32,207 bases of DNA from a virus, in IMG/VR virus record IMGVR_UViG_3300024221_000571, positions 1 through 32,207 of that record. One strand, 5' to 3'. The notes under the pieces were generated by a model that did no database searches, was not told the DNA's origin, and saw only the letters and a list, made by a program, of their open reading frames with translations. The position numbers were made by a program, and so were the translations under genes. Within the stretch, counting starts at the first letter, position 1, and each line of letters begins with the position of its first letter. Positions 5,609 to 31,903 of the stretch are shown piece after piece.

Positions 5609-6016
5609 ATGAAAATACTTGGTAATTTTGGAAAAAGAGAAGCTTTAATTTATATTATAGTTTTTCTTTGGGTTGTAATGGGAGTTTTTGCTACTTATAA
5701 AGGTGCAAGTCTGTCAGATCTAGCGGTATATTTTGGTTCTTTAACAGCATATAGTGCAACATATATATGGGCTGAAACTAGAAGACCTAGTAAAAAAACT
5801 GGAATATTTAAACCAGGCCCCAGATCAAGAAGAGAAGTTATGATATACGCGATAGTTGCTTTATGGCTTATTGCCGGTTCTTCAGCGATATGGTATTCTT
5901 CTAGTCTTACCGATTTATCAATGTATTTTGCATCATTAACGGGATTTGTTGCTGCATGGATTGCTGGCGAAAGATATAAGCCAGAAGACACAGTAAAAGA
6001 AAATTTAGAAGAATAA
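5609..6016 (+). CDS. Four-helix membrane protein made of a tandem duplication
   Basis: 135 residues from the ATG at 5609; a TTG at 5552 would add 19 residues and start 3 bases after the previous stop, so the start is uncertain. The protein is two copies of one unit. The first has REALIYIIVFLWVV, then SLSDLAVYFGSLTAYSATYIWAE. The second has REVMIYAIVALWLI, then SLTDLSMYFASLTGFVAAWIAGE. Each unit gives two predicted transmembrane helices, joined by a basic, proline-containing linker (KKTGIFKPGPRSRRE), with an acidic C-terminal tail. A holin-like or virion membrane role is possible, but neither is shown. The last base overlaps the start of the next gene. Confidence 0.75.
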   Translation: MKILGNFGKREALIYIIVFLWVVMGVFATYKGASLSDLAVYFGSLTAYSATYIWAETRRPSKKTGIFKPGPRSRREVMIYAIVALWLIAGSSAIWYSSSLTDLSMYFASLTGFVAAWIAGERYKPEDTVKENLEE

Positions 6017-7959
6017 TGGTTACAGGATATACAGCAAGCGAATACGGAGACTTTTTAATTGCTTCTCTACAAACACCATATTATAATACCGTAAAGGTTT
6101 TAGATTGGGAAATTGTAGCAGGTGTACAAAACTATAAAACAGTAGGTACTGTATCTACATCCATAGGATCTACTAAAGTATATGGAAATCTTACTAATTT
6201 TAGTCAGTTTTCGCCGGGAGATAAAATCATCATCGGTAACACTGAACTTGAAATCGCAACAATAACAACACCTATAGAATTAGATGTCACAGTTCCAATA
6301 GAATTTGAAACAAGTGAACTAGAATTTTATATTCCAGCAAATGCTAATAATTACTTTGATTATGAATATAGATTTTCATACACAAATTCTGAATTTTCAG
6401 AATGGAGAGCTTTAAATAATACAACAGGGTTTGTAGATCTTTTAGGATTAAATTTTAATCCAGCAAAACCATTGTGGATCGATGTTAAAGCTGAAGTCGC
6501 TGCACTAACAAGTGGAAGTACGATCTCAATAATATCAATAACTTATACATTAGAAACAGATCAAGGTACTATTGAATCATGTCCTCAATTTTGTGTAGAG
6601 TGTACAGATCCTTTCGCAATGAATGGATGTGCAAATATTGATGTTGGATGCGATGATAATTTATTTAATCCATATAATTTAAATAAATCAACTAATGTTT
6701 ATAAACAACTTGTCGGAATGGCAAGTAATATATTTGGACACTCAGTACAATATTTTAGAACAGAACCAGATATGAGAACAGAGGATGTTCATTTAATGGA
6801 ATACTCTTTATTCAATGTAGTTGATAAACAAAATGTAAAAATATTAGTACCAGACAACGAATTTCCAGAAGAAGGAGCAACATACGATATCTTCGGTATG
6901 GAATTTGCAGAATTTGAGGTACATATTGTCGCTTCTGAATTTGAAACAGTGTTTGGCGAAGGAAAATCACCTAGAAACAAGGATTATATGTATATTCCAT
7001 TAATTAATAGAATGTATGAAATTAATTCAATAAGTCTTGCGGATGAATTTAATCACGCTCAATCATATTGGAGAGTAAAGTTAGTTAAGTATCAAGAAAG
7101 AACTTCAGTTAATAAAAATCAATTTGAAGTAGATACTGATAATTTAACAACAGGTGTTGAAGAAATATTTGGAGAAAGACAAAAAGAAGAGCAAGAAAAA
7201 GATACAAATCCACAACAATTTCAAACAGTATCAACCGCATATAGGGACGGTATTAGAACCTTTATAGATAAAAATCTTAAAATTAAAGATTACGATTTAA
7301 AGAATAGATGGACTGTTGTTAGTAAAAACTTTTACGATTTAGATAAAGTTGATCCAACTAGAATCGCTGTTGAATATTCAGTAGAATCTAAGTTAAAATC
7401 AGAAGACAACATGGCCCTTACGCTTTGGTTCTCTCCTCAATTTAGTGAAACATCAACTGATGATTATCTTCTCTTTGGAGATCTATCTGCAATATCAGGT
7501 TTTAAATTAAGAATGAATCAATCTGAATTTAAAATGAAAATAGATGATGTAGAACATACATATACTCATGGAACGACATTAGTAAAAGGAGAATGGTATG
7601 GTATTGTATTAAATATTAATAATGAATTCTTACAATCATCTCTTTCTTTATATAAATTAGATCAAAACGTAAACACAATAAATAGCGGTTTACCACAAGA
7701 CAGTAGTAATAATTTACAACAAGTATATAGTGAAATAATTGAGCACGGCCAACCATTGATATGGGATTCAAAATCTAATTATCATTTAAGAGGAAATTCT
7801 TCTTATATGACAAATATTAGAATATTTACAAAAACAATAGAATTAGAACAACATAGTAATGTGTTAAACCAATATGTTGTTAGAGATAATCAACTATCAA
7901 TCATTATAGATAATTCAATTCCAAGTTTAGGTTATCAGCGATTTAGAAACGCTAGGTAA
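6016..7959 (+). CDS. Virion structural protein with neck (gp14-like) region and lectin-like C-terminus
   Basis: 647 residues. Residues 1-180 are beta-rich. A cysteine cluster follows (C189, C193, C196, C205, C212). Residues about 228-362 show the layout of the T4 neck protein gp14: an FGHSVQYFRTEPD start, an inner beta region, then NKDYMYIPLINRMYEINSIS and a WRVKLVKYQ strand, comparable to the T4 run ending in FPMDNSLFEINWV. Residues about 430-640 resemble a LamG/concanavalin-type jelly roll, with a GEWYGIVLNINNE strand. It directly precedes the packaging genes, where T4 has genes 13-15. It may be a neck protein with an added glycan-binding domain. Family similarity is judged by eye and may fail in a profile search. 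Confidence 0.65.
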   Translation: MVTGYTASEYGDFLIASLQTPYYNTVKVLDWEIVAGVQNYKTVGTVSTSIGSTKVYGNLTNFSQFSPGDKIIIGNTELEIATITTPIELDVTVPIEFETSELEFYIPANANNYFDYEYRFSYTNSEFSEWRALNNTTGFVDLLGLNFNPAKPLWIDVKAEVAALTSGSTISIISITYTLETDQGTIESCPQFCVECTDPFAMNGCANIDVGCDDNLFNPYNLNKSTNVYKQLVGMASNIFGHSVQYFRTEPDMRTEDVHLMEYSLFNVVDKQNVKILVPDNEFPEEGATYDIFGMEFAEFEVHIVASEFETVFGEGKSPRNKDYMYIPLINRMYEINSISLADEFNHAQSYWRVKLVKYQERTSVNKNQFEVDTDNLTTGVEEIFGERQKEEQEKDTNPQQFQTVSTAYRDGIRTFIDKNLKIKDYDLKNRWTVVSKNFYDLDKVDPTRIAVEYSVESKLKSEDNMALTLWFSPQFSETSTDDYLLFGDLSAISGFKLRMNQSEFKMKIDDVEHTYTHGTTLVKGEWYGIVLNINNEFLQSSLSLYKLDQNVNTINSGLPQDSSNNLQQVYSEIIEHGQPLIWDSKSNYHLRGNSSYMTNIRIFTKTIELEQHSNVLNQYVVRDNQLSIIIDNSIPSLGYQRFRNAR

Positions 7960-13871: not shown

Positions 13872-14087
13872 ATGGATAAACTAACAAAAAAATTACAAGT
13901 TCTTCTTTCAGAAGACGAAGTGACATCTATAAATAGAATAATATTAAGCGCCGCGATTGAAAATGGAGAGAGACCAGTTTCTGTTTCAGCTTTTATTAGA
14001 GATATAATTAGAAAAGAAATTGAATTAAAAAGTGATTCAATATTAGAATGGAATAAAGATAGTATTAAAAAACTTAAAAAGAAATAA
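13872..14087 (+). CDS. Small ribbon-helix-helix-like protein
   Basis: 71 residues. It has a short N-terminal strand (KKLQVLLSE), helix A (DEVTSINRIILSAAIEN), a turn with VSVSAF and helix B (IRDIIRKEIELK), then a basic tail. This order matches ribbon-helix-helix DNA-binding proteins, with a slightly longer first helix than usual. It is placed between the tail tube terminator and the gp26-type gene, two bases before the latter. It may be a small regulator or a structural accessory; the sequence does not decide. The first ATG is used. Confidence 0.6.
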   Translation: MDKLTKKLQVLLSEDEVTSINRIILSAAIENGERPVSVSAFIRDIIRKEIELKSDSILEWNKDSIKKLKKK

Positions 14088-14089
14088 CA

Positions 14090-15034
14090 ATGGCAGATCA
14101 AAATGATTTAAACTTAGACGATGAATATCAAAAAATCGTTGAAAACAAAGAACAACCTGTTGAAGAACCACAAAATTTAGGAAAAGTTAACATGGATCGA
14201 TTTAAACAAGATAAAGCGCAAGACGCTGATGTTGTTTTAGGATATCATGATGTTAATGTTTCTAACCTGCCTTCAGCCGGTATGTTTTATCCTGAAAAAA
14301 CTGAGATAAGCATACGTTCAGCTAAAGTTGCTGAAATTAGACACTTCTCAAGTATTGACGAAAATAATATATTAGACGTCGATGAAAAACTAAATTCAAT
14401 GATAGAATCTTGTATTAGAGTAACTTCTCAAAAACAAAGAATGTCTTATAAAGATCTTTGTGAAGAAGACAGATTTTATTTAATTTTAGCAATTAGAGAT
14501 TTAACTTTCCCAGAGCCTGAATCTAAATTAACAGTACAACACAAAGATAAAAAAGGTAAAAAGCACGAGGTTGAAGTTAAAAAAGAAAACTTTAAATATT
14601 TCAGTGTCCCAGATACTTTAGATAAATATTACGATAAAGAAGCTTGTGCTTTTTTAATTGAAACTAAATCTTTTGGAACAATTACAATGAAACCACCAAC
14701 AATTGGTATCATGCAACGTATGACGTCTTATATTAAAGATCGTCAAGAAAAAGGAGAATCAATTGATCAATCAGTCCTTCAAGTTATGCCTTACTTAGTA
14801 AGCGAATGGAGAGGATTTGATGACAAGAGTATTTTTAAATTCGAAATTGAAATGAATGGATGGTCTAACAAAAAATATAGCTTAATCTATAAGCTGGCGG
14901 AACAGATGAAAATCGGTATTCAGCCTGACATGGAAGTACAGATTGGGGACGAGTGGGAGGTCGTCCCAATTGGGTTTCGCGACGGGATCAAGTCTCTTTT
15001 CATTGTTCAAGATATCGCTGGAGAACTTCTTTAA
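14090..15034 (+). CDS. 26: gp26-type baseplate/tail assembly protein; zero-frame partner of a putative +1 frameshift
   Basis: 314 residues. An acidic disordered N-terminus (1-60) is followed by a domain beginning NLPSAGMFYPEKTEISIRSA, with conserved KVAEIRHFSSIDENN and a DRFYLILAIRDLTFPEPE strand. This is the pattern of the T4 base plate protein family that contains gp26 (208 aa). The frame ends GAA CTT CTT TAA. The codon CTT before the stop gives exactly the kind of +1 slip used in RF2 (CTT to TTT), entering an overlapping open frame (to 15254). It is followed by the tape measure candidate, the position where other tailed phages have G/GT tail assembly chaperones. It may therefore act as a tape measure chaperone as well as, or rather than, a baseplate hub factor. 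Confidence 0.75.
   Translation: MADQNDLNLDDEYQKIVENKEQPVEEPQNLGKVNMDRFKQDKAQDADVVLGYHDVNVSNLPSAGMFYPEKTEISIRSAKVAEIRHFSSIDENNILDVDEKLNSMIESCIRVTSQKQRMSYKDLCEEDRFYLILAIRDLTFPEPESKLTVQHKDKKGKKHEVEVKKENFKYFSVPDTLDKYYDKEACAFLIETKSFGTITMKPPTIGIMQRMTSYIKDRQEKGESIDQSVLQVMPYLVSEWRGFDDKSIFKFEIEMNGWSNKKYSLIYKLAEQMKIGIQPDMEVQIGDEWEVVPIGFRDGIKSLFIVQDIAGELL
14942..14970 (+). other. GC-rich RNA hairpin near the end of the gp26-type gene
   Basis: ATTGGGGACGA (14942-14952) pairs with TCGTCCCAAT (14961-14970), ten pairs with one bulged G, around an 8-base loop. The surrounding 60 bases are far more GC-rich than the neighbouring coding sequence. It lies about 60 bases upstream of the proposed shift site and covers the TTG that opens the overlapping frame. 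It could influence translation of the overlap; the role is unknown. Confidence 0.5.
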
Positions 15035-15254
15035 AACGAAGTTTTACATATATAAAGAACTACATATTCAGCCTTCTGAATTAGAATCAATGGAATATTA
15101 CGAATTTCATTATTTAGTAAAAGATTTAGCTGAATTTATTAAGAAACAGAATGCTGCGAACGAAGGTCAACAGGAACAATCTGGGGACATGATGAGCAAA
15201 ATGAAGATTCCAAACATGAAGATTCCAAATATGAAGATTCCATCATTACGATGA
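14943..15254 (+). CDS. Overlapping +1-frame tail chaperone extension
   Basis: This frame is open from 14910 and has no ATG before 15090; the only upstream start is a TTG at 14943 inside a strong hairpin. The meaningful protein begins around the neighbour's stop codon: KTKFYIYKELHIQPSELE followed by a helical MEYYEFHYLVKDLAEFIKKQ segment, the sort of small helical domain found in frameshift extensions of tail assembly chaperones. It ends with three MKIPN-type repeats. I infer it is made mainly as a fusion with the upstream protein by +1 frameshifting, adding 73 residues, rather than as a free protein. Independent translation from TTG 14943 (103 aa) or ATG 15090 (54 aa) remains possible. Confidence 0.65.
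   Translation: MGTSGRSSQLGFATGSSLFSLFKISLENFFKTKFYIYKELHIQPSELESMEYYEFHYLVKDLAEFIKKQNAANEGQQEQSGDMMSKMKIPNMKIPNMKIPSLR
15020..15036 (+). promoter_or_regulatory. Putative programmed +1 frameshift site (CUU-UAA, RF2-like)
   Basis: The zero-frame end is GGA GAA CTT CTT TAA. A peptidyl-tRNA on the last CTT (15029-15031) can re-pair with TTT (15030-15032), after which AAA (15033-15035) starts the +1 frame, open to 15254. RF2 genes use CUU before UGA with an upstream purine-rich Shine-Dalgarno-like block; here GGAGAA (15020-15025) lies just upstream. The fusion would be 314 + 73 = 387 residues. Confidence 0.55.
15201..15245 (+). repeat. Three tandem 15-base repeats encoding MKIPN
   Basis: ATGAAGATTCCAAAC, ATGAAGATTCCAAAT and ATGAAGATTCCATCA are adjacent and in frame at the 3' end of the chaperone extension. 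They differ only at the last three to four bases. The third copy forms the 5' arm of the following hairpin. Confidence 0.9.
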
Positions 15255-15308: not shown

Positions 15309-17537
15309 ATGAAGGCTTTATTAGCACCACTACAAAGATTAGCAAATATTATAGAATACCAGAATGAAAAGATAGATCAAATTCATTCAGTCTTAACGGT
15401 AGATTTAAAGAAAGCAGCTAGTAATAATTTTTCAGAACTGAAAAAACAGACTAGGCTATTACTAGATATTAAAGGATTGCTAAAAGCGCAGTCAAAGGAT
15501 AAAGGATCCAAAGACGGTGGCGGAGGTGGATTTAAAATGCCTAGTGCTATGCAAGCTTTAGGCGCAGGACTAGTTATAGTGAGTATTGCGGCCGGATTAG
15601 TTGCCGCTGCTGGTATTTTTATGTTAATGCCTGCTATAAATCCAATGCAATTAGTATCAGCTTTATTAATAGCAGCTGTATTTTTAGCATTAGCACCTGT
15701 ATTTTCAGAGATATTAAAATCTCAACAAGGAGGTGGAATGGTAGATAAAATGCTGGGTGGAAAGCCTAAAGGAGATCAAATGACTTCTCCTAAAGACGCT
15801 CTTAAAAATACAGGAGCCGCTGTGCTAGCGATGATTTCTATGGCAGCTGGTATTACAGTATCTTCTTGGATTTTACAATTAATTATGCCAGTTTCTTTTG
15901 CGAAACTAGGTTCAGCTATATTAATAGGTTTAGTATTTATACCATTGGGTTATGCTTTTGGATTTATTATAAAGGCCTTAGCTGCCGCTAAAATACAAAT
16001 GAACCCTAAAGGAATTGGAATGATAGGTATGGTATCATTAGCAATGGCCGCAATCGCAGTTGGTATATCTTTAGTCGCTATGACTTGGAACGCAATGATG
16101 CCTGATAATTTTGTTAAATTACCGCCATGGGAATGGGTTATAAAGTCTGCTTTAATTTTAGGTATATTTGCAGGTGCATTTTATTTAATTGCTAAAGCGG
16201 TAAAAGGTATGAGTTTTAAGGAAATGATAATGACAGGGCTTGTATTACCGATGATGGCTTTAGCTATTGTTGGAGTTGCTTTTGTATTTCAATTATTTGA
16301 TTCGGTCGGCACATTTACATCGCCTCCTCTTGAATGGAGTTTAAAAGCAGGATTAACTTTACTTATATTTTCTCTTCCATTTATAGCAATTGCTTTAATT
16401 GCAAAAAAATTAGATTTTAAAGCTGTAGTTAAAACGGCACTCGCTATGGTTTTAATATCAATCGCAATATTAGGAACAGCTTGGATATTTTCAGCACTAG
16501 ATGGTGTCACATACTTGTCACCTCCGCTTGATTGGGTTATTGCTTCTGCAATAGCAATTACAATATTTGCAATTCCACTTCTCGTGGTATCATTGATAGC
16601 AAAAACAGGTGGTGGAGCTGTTGGGATTCTTATTGGCGCTGCTGGTATTATTTTAATTGCAGGAACCATGTGGGTTGTTGCTTGGATATTTAGTAAATTA
16701 CCTGATTTAAGCGCAATTTCTAAAAACTTTACTGATGCAATTATGTACCCTATAGACGCGATGATAAATGTACTTAATAGATTTAAAAATGAAATAGGTA
16801 TAGAAAATTTATTACCAATGGCAGGTGGTCTTATTGCAATAGCTGCGGGTTGGTTAGCTTTAACAGCCGCTCTTGCTGGTCAATCTATTGGAGGTTTGGT
16901 TTCTGGAGCTGCAAACGCAATTGGTGATTTCTTAGGATTTGAAGGTGACGGACCTGCAGATCTTTTAGATAAATTAGCAGAGAGAAAAGATTCTATTATT
17001 GCATTAGGAAATCCTATAAAAATCTTAGGAATAGGTATTGCTAGAATAGCATCAAGCTCTAAAGGACTTAAACTTGCTTTATCATCTATGACCGCCTTAG
17101 TATCTCGTAATAGATCAAAAGAATTTGAAAAAGTAGCAACATCAAGTGAAAGGCTAGCAAAGGCATTTAGAAGTATTTCTGCGTCAACTAGATCAATGAA
17201 TGTTAAAGCAATGAATGCTTCTTCAAGAATGTTTGAGGCAATTGCAAAAATAGCAGAGAATGACGGTGAAGATGCTATAACAGTACTTGCTGGACAATTA
17301 TTAGAGGCGGTTGAACATCTTTCAGAAACAGTAGACAATTTAGAAAAAGCAAGTGAGTCAAACCAGAAAGGCATGAAAGACGCCCTATCAGGCATAATGG
17401 ATTCATTCTTAGATCGACTTAAAGGTGTTGATAATGAGACAGGTGAGACTCCTGCATTATTTGATGTAAGCGGAGTTATTGAGGCAATAGAGGAACTTGA
17501 AGCAAGATTCGATAGCCCTCTATTCATTAAAAAATAA
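15309..17537 (+). CDS. Tape measure protein candidate
   Basis: 742 residues. It has an N-terminal coiled coil (about 5-60), a Gly run (70-74), then about ten hydrophobic segments between residues 82 and 550 and a soluble helical C-terminal third (about 550-742). A repeating pattern is visible in the hydrophobic half, with PPWEWVIKSALIL, PPLEWSLKAGLTL and PPLDWVIASAIAI each opening one repeat. Long hydrophobic-helical proteins directly after the assembly chaperone pair are typically tape measures, which set tail length and are ejected into the host envelope; T4 uses gp29 (590 aa) for this. No lysozyme or peptidase motif is visible. A virion membrane-active protein is the alternative. Confidence 0.7.
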   Translation: MKALLAPLQRLANIIEYQNEKIDQIHSVLTVDLKKAASNNFSELKKQTRLLLDIKGLLKAQSKDKGSKDGGGGGFKMPSAMQALGAGLVIVSIAAGLVAAAGIFMLMPAINPMQLVSALLIAAVFLALAPVFSEILKSQQGGGMVDKMLGGKPKGDQMTSPKDALKNTGAAVLAMISMAAGITVSSWILQLIMPVSFAKLGSAILIGLVFIPLGYAFGFIIKALAAAKIQMNPKGIGMIGMVSLAMAAIAVGISLVAMTWNAMMPDNFVKLPPWEWVIKSALILGIFAGAFYLIAKAVKGMSFKEMIMTGLVLPMMALAIVGVAFVFQLFDSVGTFTSPPLEWSLKAGLTLLIFSLPFIAIALIAKKLDFKAVVKTALAMVLISIAILGTAWIFSALDGVTYLSPPLDWVIASAIAITIFAIPLLVVSLIAKTGGGAVGILIGAAGIILIAGTMWVVAWIFSKLPDLSAISKNFTDAIMYPIDAMINVLNRFKNEIGIENLLPMAGGLIAIAAGWLALTAALAGQSIGGLVSGAANAIGDFLGFEGDGPADLLDKLAERKDSIIALGNPIKILGIGIARIASSSKGLKLALSSMTALVSRNRSKEFEKVATSSERLAKAFRSISASTRSMNVKAMNASSRMFEAIAKIAENDGEDAITVLAGQLLEAVEHLSETVDNLEKASESNQKGMKDALSGIMDSFLDRLKGVDNETGETPALFDVSGVIEAIEELEARFDSPLFIKK

Positions 17538-18907: not shown

Positions 18908-19336
18908 ATGTATCAATATAAAGCTAAAGTAAATAGAATTATAGATGGAGATTCAGTAGTCTTAGATATTGATTTAGGTTTTGATATGTGGATTAAAAAA
19001 CAAAATGTAAGAATACATGGTATCGATACCCCTGAGTGTCGAACAAGAGATCTTGATGAAAAGGCAAGAGGATTAATGGCAAAAAGTCATGTTAAAGATC
19101 TTTTACAAATTGGAGAAAAAGTCACAATAAATACTTATAGAGATAAAGCCGGTAAGTTTGGCAGAATTTTAGGAAAAGTAATAAATATAGAAGGAATAGA
19201 TATAGGACAATCTCTTTTAGATAATCACTTAGCAGTCGAATATTATGGACAATCTAAAGATGAAATAAAAGAACAGCACCTTGAAAATAGGTCAATATTA
19301 ATATTAGAACAAAGATACACACCTAATGAAGATTAA
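18908..19336 (+). CDS. Staphylococcal-nuclease-like (thermonuclease) protein
   Basis: 142 residues, the size of a minimal SNase OB-fold domain. Catalytic features are present: IIDGDSVVLD with D13 (about 11-20), RIHGIDTPE (35-43) containing the first arginine and the metal/active Asp, and GKFGRILGKV (82-91) with the second arginine R86. There is no signal peptide, so it would act in the cell, perhaps degrading host nucleic acid or processing phage DNA. It starts one base after the methyltransferase stop and overlaps the RmlC gene by 11 bases, so it belongs to the same unit. Confidence 0.9.
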   Translation: MYQYKAKVNRIIDGDSVVLDIDLGFDMWIKKQNVRIHGIDTPECRTRDLDEKARGLMAKSHVKDLLQIGEKVTINTYRDKAGKFGRILGKVINIEGIDIGQSLLDNHLAVEYYGQSKDEIKEQHLENRSILILEQRYTPNED

Positions 19337-19904
19337 CAAAGATTTTTTAATCCATGGCTTGATAGAATTCATACCAAACATATATGAAGACAGTCGTGGA
19401 CAGTTTATAGAAACCTTTAACGAGAACGTGCTCAGGGACCTCGGGTTTACAGAACACTTTAAACAGGATAATCAAAGTATCTCAGAGGCTGGGGTGTTTA
19501 GGGGGATCCATTTACAATCAGATCCACATGCCCAAGGAAAATTAGTAAGAGTAGCTAAAGGTAGTGTAATTGATTATGCAATAGATTTAAGACCGCAATC
19601 TCCGACGTTTGGTCAATGGGATAGTGTTCTTTTATCAGCAGATAGAGGAAATCAATTTTGGATTCCGGAAGGATTTGGACATGCTTTTCTTGCACTTGAG
19701 GATGATACTATTTTTTGCTATAAATGTACTGAGGTATATGCTCCCGATCACCAGGTAGGTATCAGGTGGGACGACAAGGATATTAATTTAGATCTTGAAC
19801 ATACAGTTTATGCAGGTGATATTAAAATAAGTGATAAAGACAAAGACGCTTTATACTTTTCAGAATTCGCTAGAGATTATATAAATAAACCAACATTATT
19901 ATGA
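19326..19904 (+). CDS. rmlC: RmlC-like dTDP-4-dehydrorhamnose 3,5-epimerase
   Basis: 192 residues, full length for RmlC. It would epimerise C3 and C5 of dTDP-4-keto-6-deoxyglucose in dTDP-L-rhamnose synthesis. Visible family features are DSRGQFIETF (22-31), VFRGIHLQ with catalytic H62, AIDLRPQSPTFGQW (85-98), WIPEGFGHAFLAL (112-124) and Y132 in the FCYKCTEVY run, which match the two catalytic positions known for the family. The early part is more GC-rich than neighbours, hinting at acquisition. No RmlA, B or D is next to it, although an SDR epimerase lies at 26706. It may act on host or phage glycans together with host enzymes. Confidence 0.9.
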   Translation: MKINKDFLIHGLIEFIPNIYEDSRGQFIETFNENVLRDLGFTEHFKQDNQSISEAGVFRGIHLQSDPHAQGKLVRVAKGSVIDYAIDLRPQSPTFGQWDSVLLSADRGNQFWIPEGFGHAFLALEDDTIFCYKCTEVYAPDHQVGIRWDDKDINLDLEHTVYAGDIKISDKDKDALYFSEFARDYINKPTLL

Positions 19905-20358: not shown

Positions 20359-20946
20359 ATGGTAATCTACGTTGCTCCTCCAAGAGGTGTAAAAGAGAAG
20401 GAATCTTGTTTAGCTTGGTTAAAACATTATAAATATGAAGTTATTTGGTTAGATCTAAGACGTAAGGTTAAGGGACCTTTATTATTATGTGGAGGTGCAG
20501 ACATTGGAAAAGATCCAGAAAGAGATGAAAAAGAATTTGTATGGATTAAACAGGCATTAGATTCTGGATATCCTATTCTAGGTTTATGTCGAGGAATGCA
20601 AGTATTAAATCATTATTTTGGAGGAAAGGTTGAAGATCTAAGCGAATCTATAGTAGAAGATCATAAAGCAGCAGACTTTTCTGAAAACATAGATCATAGT
20701 GGAAAACCATCTCAATTCCACACAGTTGAAGACTTAAATGGAAAGTTAATTAACGTTAATTCCCGACACCACCAACACTGCCCTATTCTAGCAGATAATT
20801 TTACAGCAACGCATCTATCATATCCTCTATATTCTGTTATAGAAGGATTTGAAGACGTTGAAAGAAAGATATGGGCATGTCAGTGGCATCCTGAAAAAAT
20901 GGAATCTGAGGATAATGAATATCCATTAAATAAACTTCGAAAATAA
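20359..20946 (+). CDS. Class I glutamine amidotransferase-like hydrolase (peptidase C26/PuuD type)
   Basis: 195 residues. The catalytic triad of class I GATases is complete: nucleophile C77 in ILGLCRGMQVL, and H177 and E179 in ACQWHPEKME. VNSRHHQH (133-140) is the motif that distinguishes PuuD-type gamma-glutamyl hydrolases. It would cleave a gamma-glutamyl amide, or supply ammonia to an unseen partner. No amidoligase or synthetase is adjacent. Phage GATases of this family are known near carboxylate-amine ligases, so the partner may lie outside this window. Two hairpins after the stop end the unit. Confidence 0.85.
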   Translation: MVIYVAPPRGVKEKESCLAWLKHYKYEVIWLDLRRKVKGPLLLCGGADIGKDPERDEKEFVWIKQALDSGYPILGLCRGMQVLNHYFGGKVEDLSESIVEDHKAADFSENIDHSGKPSQFHTVEDLNGKLINVNSRHHQHCPILADNFTATHLSYPLYSVIEGFEDVERKIWACQWHPEKMESEDNEYPLNKLRK

Positions 20947-31785: not shown

Positions 31786-31859
31786 GGACTTATAGCTCAG
31801 TTGGTTAGAGCACCGCACTCATAATGCGTAGGTCGTAGGTTCGAGCCCTACTAGGTCCA
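31786..31859 (+). tRNA. tRNA with anticodon CAT (Met or lysidine-type Ile)
   Basis: A regular cloverleaf: acceptor GGACTTA/TAGGTCC with one G-T, D stem GCTC/GAGC, anticodon loop CTCATAA with anticodon CAT at 31820-31822, T stem GTAGG/CCTAC with loop TTCGAGC, and discriminator A at 31859. The 3' CCA is not fully encoded (ACC then T). The first anticodon-stem pair is a mismatch. Elongator Met and Ile2 tRNAs share this loop, so the amino acid is open. Confidence 0.9.
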
Positions 31860-31903
31860 CCTTCAAGTTCAGTTATGATATACTGATATTGAAAAATAGT
31901 TGC

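What the first reader, a model, noticed from the sequence alone, without database searches (positions are those of the whole stretch)
14910..15254. RF2-like +1 frameshift (CUU-UAA) joining a gp26-type protein to a tail chaperone extension
The gp26-type frame ends CTT TAA. A +1 slip from CTT to TTT leads directly into AAA of an open frame that has no ATG until 15090. This is the same slip as in RF2 genes (CUU before a stop), and GGAGAA lies just upstream as a possible Shine-Dalgarno-like stimulator. The pair is immediately upstream of the tape measure candidate, where lambda-like phages make G/GT chaperones by frameshifting. I know of no established equivalent in T4 itself, so this would link the T4 gp26 family to frameshifted tail assembly chaperones.
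Basis: partly seen in the sequence, partly recalled or inferred. Interest (0 to 1): 0.85.

Follow-up and report, generated by a model that had tools for sequence, protein, structure and literature searches.

The report
Frameshifted T4-type tail assembly chaperone

Summary
The 314-aa ORF (14090-15034) ends CTT TAA; a +1 frame, open from 14910 with no ATG until 15090, continues to 15254. The overlap is conserved in 49 near relatives, in about 50 distinct sequences of a second clade (~24% identical) and in ten distant huge or Bacteroidota-type phages (Lak, PAU, PTm1 among them).

The ORF belongs to the T4 gp26/gp51 family, and the +1 extension matches the C-terminal extension that separates gp51 from gp26. 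So the main idea, a frameshift-joined gp26/gp51-type tail assembly chaperone, is supported.

The proposed slip site is not. CTT-TAA is absent outside the near clade and its closest outgroup. Upstream of it the +1 peptide SLFKISLENFFK is already invariant while the 0-frame changes. Silent variation drops from 0.40 to about 0 starting at CTT TTC (14996-15001), the aligned place where cyanophage gp26 genes carry a -1 slippery T TTT TTC.

Best reading: programmed frameshifting (+1 or -2) at NTT TTC gives a 314-aa and a ~388-aa chaperone. An independent start is unlikely. A conserved upstream block (GGAGG...ACGGAATCAAA) is unexplained. New variant of a known kind; all evidence is comparative.

The parts
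14090..15034 (+). 0-frame ORF, 314 aa: short tail assembly chaperone, T4 gp26/gp51 family
   Evidence: profile match to gp26 family; PF12322 in 4 of 13 relatives; predicted fold matches T4-like baseplate hub proteins
14996..15001 (+). Inferred frameshift site CTT TTC (0-frame codons L303 F304)
   Evidence: Start of the silent-site constraint and of +1-frame coding conservation; same aligned place as the cyanophage -1 site
15000..15254 (+). +1-frame extension (SLFKISLENFFK... 84 aa + stop): gp51-type C-terminal extension
   Evidence: phrog_634 match 15000-15182, E 2e-5; profile match to gp51 extensions; variants synonymous in +1
14999..15031 (+). Dual-coding overlap translated in both the 0 and +1 frames
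   Evidence: Silent differences about 0 over these codons against 0.40 along the ORF; 6/7 variants synonymous in +1, 0/7 in 0-frame
15029..15034 (+). Terminal CTT TAA of the 0-frame: stop of the short form, not the shift site
   Evidence: Absent in clade 2 and most distant relatives that keep the overlap
14956..14992 (+). Upstream conserved nucleotide block (GGAGG 14956-14960; TTTCGCGACGGGATCAAG 14975-14992), function unknown, possible stimulator
   Evidence: Unusual codon choice and GC3 in both clades; GGAGG-type motif 35-41 nt before the shift codon in most lineages
15309..17537 (+). 742-aa tape-measure candidate directly downstream
   Evidence: Position and long hydrophobic stretches between residues 79 and 527; no family match

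Best explanation
The locus encodes a tail assembly chaperone of the T4 gp26/gp51 family. Most ribosomes end at 15034 and make the 314-aa short form (gp26 or lambda G role). A fraction change frame at CTT TTC (14996-15001), enter the +1 frame at TCA TTG TTC AAG and end at 15254, making a form of about 388 aa with a gp51-type C-terminal extension (gp51 or lambda GT role). By analogy with lambda, the shared part would coat the tape-measure protein and the extension would recruit tube subunits. Shown by sequence comparison: homology, conserved dual coding, and where +1 coding starts. Inferred: that ribosomal frameshifting is the cause, its direction and efficiency, and the assembly role. Direction is unresolved: -2 (tRNA-Phe moving from TTC back to TTT) re-pairs perfectly in the common NTT TTC context and is slightly favoured; +1 (CTT to TTT, the RF2 slip but without a stop codon) remains possible.
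For: gp26-family homology and gp51-type extension. Overlap conserved in two clades and ten distant phages. Silent differences fall from 0.40 to about 0 starting at NTT TTC in both clades. In clade 1, 6 of 7 overlap variants are synonymous in +1 and none in the 0-frame. L058, L072 and L066 have no ATG/GTG/TTG in the +1 frame before the conserved domain. Cyanophage, Vibrio and Aeromonas T4-likes carry T TTT TTC with the extension in the -1 frame at the same aligned place. Position directly upstream of the tape-measure candidate.
Against: No protein or ribosome data. No canonical +1 signal (stop or rare codon in the A site) and no conserved RNA structure. Variants CTA TTC, TTA TTC, ATA TTC and ATT GTC do not re-pair well for either direction. 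In clade 2 the variant test in the overlap is not decisive (5/18 synonymous in +1) and an ATG is always present inside the overlap.
Confidence: 0.82

Rival explanations
1. RF2-like +1 slip at the terminal CTT TAA (15029-15034), stimulated by GGAGAA.
For: GAA CTT CTT TAA is invariant in 49 of 49 near relatives and present in LR756500 and L072/L075; CTT-stop is the RF2 slip.
Against: Clade 2 (GAA TAA) and most distant phages lack it but keep the overlap. The +1 frame is already conserved 11 codons upstream, which this slip would not require. Invariance of CTT CTT TAA is expected from dual coding (+1 AAC TTC TTT AAA). GGAGAA becomes CAAGAA in L040-L044.
Confidence: 0.05
2. The +1 frame is a separate overlapping gene with its own internal start.
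For: A TTG at 15003 in the window; an ATG or two inside the overlap in every clade 2 sequence; PAU, PTm1 and MaF61 records annotate a separate short ORF.
Against: L058, L072 and L066 have no ATG/GTG/TTG before the conserved domain; the 15003 TTG is TTA in L030 and L032-L034. +1 coding conservation starts upstream of the clade 2 ATGs, at ATT TTC. The nearest GGAG lies about 20 nt from them, too far for initiation. T4 gp51 is a fusion of the two domains.
Confidence: 0.09
3. Transcriptional slippage at the T run joins the frames.
For: The site contains a short T run (CTTTTC).
Against: Four T's is short for slippage, and the run is broken (CTATTC, TTATTC, ATATTC) in three lineages that keep the overlap.
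Confidence: 0.02

Closest known systems
T4 gp26 / gp51 (short and long tail assembly chaperones; Vladimirov, Gautam and Davidson 2022, known to me only through citing papers)
   Same: Homologous short protein; homologous C-terminal extension on the long form
   Different: T4 encodes them as two separate, divergently transcribed genes; here one overlapping locus with the extension in the +1 frame
Cyanophage, schizo-T4 Vibrio and Aeromonas gp26 + gp51
   Same: Same family, same gene order, extension entered at the same aligned place at a TTC codon
   Different: Extension lies in the -1 frame behind a standard T TTT TTC slippery site; here in the +1 frame behind NTT TTC
Lambda G / GT and other frameshifted tail chaperones (P2 E/E', Mu -2, HSTV-2 +1; PMC5009743)
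   Same: Short and frameshift-extended chaperone just upstream of the tape measure; -2 and +1 versions are known
   Different: No sequence homology was tested; T4 was cited as the exception
RF2 (prfB) +1 frameshift
   Same: CTT as a possible slip codon
   Different: No stop codon follows the inferred shift codon, there is no Shine-Dalgarno at 3 nt, and the terminal CTT-TAA is not conserved

Membership tests
T4 gp26/gp51 tail assembly chaperone family | Sequence homology of the short protein to gp26 | tested here: met
   Profile-profile 96.7%, E 3.9e-10 over 213 columns; PF12322 in 4 of 13 relatives, best 3.4e-8, though not in the window protein itself; fold match
T4 gp26/gp51 tail assembly chaperone family | Long form carries a gp51-type C-terminal extension | tested here: met
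   phrog_634 E 2e-5; profile-profile 92%, E 5.8e-7
Frameshift-encoded G/GT-type tail chaperones | Second frame overlaps the end of the first and is conserved without its own start codon | tested here: met
   Conserved overlap; no start codon in L058, L072, L066
Frameshift-encoded G/GT-type tail chaperones | Locus directly upstream of the tape-measure gene | tested here: inconclusive
   A 742-aa hydrophobic ORF follows at 15309, but no family match proves it is the tape measure
Frameshift-encoded G/GT-type tail chaperones | Fusion protein made in vivo at a set ratio, binds tape measure and tube protein | not testable with these tools
   needs protein data
RF2-type +1 frameshift | Slip codon directly followed by a stop codon | tested here: not met
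   The inferred shift codon CTT is followed by TTC; the terminal CTT-TAA is absent in clade 2 and most distant relatives
RF2-type +1 frameshift | Shine-Dalgarno about 3 nt upstream of the slip codon | tested here: not met
   None at that spacing at CTT TTC; GGAGAA at the terminal CTT is not conserved

The most novel reading that the evidence does not exclude
A widespread recoding element in Bacteroidota-type and huge phages in which a single tRNA-Phe slips back two bases (TTC to TTT), helped by a conserved mRNA block (GGAGG...TTTCNNNACGGAATCAAA) lying about 4-40 nt upstream of the site, a stimulator type not described for tail chaperones as far as I know. It and the -1 T TTT TTC site of cyanophages would have diverged from one ancestral site, with T4 replacing frameshifting by gene duplication.
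Probability: 0.3. Interest if true: 0.75.

Novelty: new variant of a known kind. Interest (0 to 1): 0.58.

Why it matters
Frameshift-made tail chaperones are near universal in long-tailed phages, and T4 has been cited as the exception (PMC5009743), resolved as two separate genes (PMC10885494, citing Vladimirov 2022). Here the T4-type chaperone appears as an overlapping gene with the extension in the +1 frame, while cyanophages carry it in the -1 frame at the same aligned site. That lets one homologous protein pair be followed across three ways of making it: a -1 frame, a +1 frame and separate genes. It also means public records probably misannotate the long form: PAU gp94 and PTm1 gp023 are listed as separate short proteins.

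Tried and rejected
RF2-like slip at CTT-TAA: rejected by distant relatives and by selection upstream of it. Internal start: not conserved. RNA structure: the window fold has z -0.79 and the clade 1 alignment shows no covarying pair; clade 2 was aligned but not folded. Shine-Dalgarno near the inferred site: only loose GGA matches at 8-11 nt in some lineages. Single-sequence structure prediction was useless (pLDDT 32); with 38 relatives it reached 80.8. No solved structure matches (the RavO hit, E 0.006, was judged chance). The Virology 2022 paper was not held. No held paper was found describing this in Lak or Bacteroidota phages.

Full report
Observation. The sequence facts hold. The ORF 14090-15034 (314 aa) ends GAA CTT CTT TAA, and the +1 frame is open from 14910 to the stop at 15252-15254, with no ATG before 15090. 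Of 55 related IMG/VR loci, 49 could be read to the end of the ORF. All 49 keep GAA CTT CTT TAA, and all keep the +1 frame except L028, a contig that ends just past the stop.

What the proteins are. The 314-aa protein has no Pfam hit of its own, but a profile of it and 12 relatives matches a profile of T4, cyanophage, Vibrio and Aeromonas gp26 proteins (96.7%, E 3.9e-10). Four of the 13 match PF12322 T4_baseplate (best 3.4e-8). Its predicted fold (pLDDT 80.8) matches T4-like baseplate hub and gp51-like proteins. The +1 extension matches phrog_634, baseplate hub assembly catalyst, from 15000 (E 2e-5). T4 gp26 and gp51 both match phrog_150, and the C-terminal part of gp51 alone matches phrog_634. 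A profile of the +1 extensions matches a profile of gp51-type extensions (92%, E 5.8e-7). So the locus carries the gp26 domain and, in the +1 frame, the part that distinguishes gp51 from gp26. In T4 these are separate, divergent genes.

Where the frame changes. In clade 1 the +1 peptide SLFKISLENFFK is constant (one E to K change) while the 0-frame changes (I/F/L, A/S/T, G/Q). In the overlap 6 of 7 distinct variants are synonymous in +1 and none in the 0-frame, whereas in the 60 nt upstream 26 of 66 are synonymous in the 0-frame and 9 in +1. Silent differences average 0.40 along the ORF and fall to zero over the last 11 codons, beginning at TTC after CTT/ATT/CTA. A second clade, found from the huge phage LR745206 (about 24% protein identity to the window), shows a similar fall (average 0.38 to about 0.05) beginning at ATT/GTT TTC, 14 codons from the end; its ORF ends GAA TAA, so there is no CTT-stop. 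In clade 2 the variant test by itself is not decisive (5/18 synonymous in +1), because both frames constrain the overlap. Ten distant phages show the same overlap, mostly at NT[T/A] TTC: LR756500, Lak, PAU, PTm1, pT24, MA9V-1, MaF61 and three huge phages. Slip codons seen are CTT, ATT, GTT, CTA, TTA and ATA; MA9V-1 has ATT TTT and pT24 ATT GTC.

Independent support for that position. Cyanophage P-SSM2 gp26 ends AGT TTT TTC GTA TAA, and the gp51 homology begins upstream of that stop in the -1 frame. Five other T4-like phages examined (S-P4, P-HM1, phi-Grn1, phiAS5, D483) share [GA]T TTT TTC with the extension in -1, and ME01 has GAT TTT TTC TAG. The gp26 profile alignment ends at GIKSLF/GLKEFF, which is the same position. 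The two groups therefore appear to change frame at one homologous place but into different frames.

Start-codon alternative. L058, L072 and L066 have no ATG, GTG or TTG in the +1 frame between its upstream stop and the conserved domain; L030 and L032-L034 have lost the TTG at the position of window 15003. Clade 2 always keeps an ATG inside the overlap, so internal initiation there is not strictly excluded.

Mechanism. Most likely programmed ribosomal frameshifting at 14996-15001, giving 314-aa and about 388-aa forms. A -2 shift lets tRNA-Phe re-pair from TTC to TTT in the common NTT TTC context; a +1 shift would move CTT to TTT. Both fit poorly where the codon is NTA or in pT24, so direction is left open. 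No conserved RNA structure was found. A block ending about 4 nt before the site is unusually conserved and GC-rich at third positions (GC3 0.57-0.68 in the -30 to -20 codon bin, against 0.13-0.41 further upstream); between codon -36 and the site GAG is 85 of 107 and 124 of 140 Glu codons, against 210 of 1055 and 282 of 1135 elsewhere. A GGAGG-type motif ends 35-41 nt before the shift codon in most lineages. Its role is unexplained; a stimulator is a guess.

Known context. Tail-chaperone frameshifting is conserved in long-tailed phages 'except T4' (PMC5009743). PMC10885494 reports from Vladimirov 2022 that some T4-like phages carry separate short and fused long genes, and PMC12846349 attributes -1 poly-T signals in T4-like chaperone genes to the same paper, which I could not read. 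The finding is therefore a new variant of a known kind: a T4-type chaperone with the extension in the +1 frame, in Bacteroidota-type and huge phages.

Limits. All evidence is comparative sequence; the fusion protein, its ratio and its binding partners were not measured. The tape-measure assignment rests on position and hydropathy. The host of the window's phage is not known; cultured or assigned relatives infect Prevotella, Tenacibaculum, Chryseobacterium, Flavobacterium and Sphingomonas as written in their records.

Noticed in passing
window 14956-14992 and equivalents in most relatives: A block upstream of the inferred shift site (GGAGG ... TTTCNNNACGGAATCAAA) is conserved at the nucleotide level with unusual GC-rich codon choice; not explained by +1 coding or by a conserved fold.
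   Followed up: partly
L161-L166, L169 (cyanophage, Vibrio, Aeromonas gp26/gp51): gp26 ends in T TTT TTC and the gp51 extension lies in the -1 frame, suggesting a -1 frameshift; records annotate gp51 as a separate short gene.
   Followed up: partly
L167, L168 (Vibrio phages D495 and 207E48.1): gp26-like ORF ends near CTT TT[CT] with a gp51-type extension in the -1 frame and a TAATG-type stop/start overlap; could be frameshift or reinitiation.
   Followed up: no
L175 (LR745206.1 262746-263378): A second, divergent gp26-family ORF (257 aa) in the same huge phage, matching profile positions 46-265 only.
   Followed up: no
window 19326-19904 and 20359-20946: dTDP-4-dehydrorhamnose 3,5-epimerase-like and class I glutamine amidotransferase-like genes amid the structural genes.
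   Followed up: no
window 18908-19336: ORF matching phrog_452 (endonuclease), E 4e-33.
   Followed up: no
window 6016-7959: 647-aa ORF with a weak neck/head-closure Hc2 match in the middle and a very weak tail fibre match at the N-terminus.
   Followed up: no
window 13872-14087: 71-aa ORF directly upstream of the gp26-type gene, no family match.
   Followed up: no
window 31786-31861: One tRNA-Met (CAT) gene.
   Followed up: no
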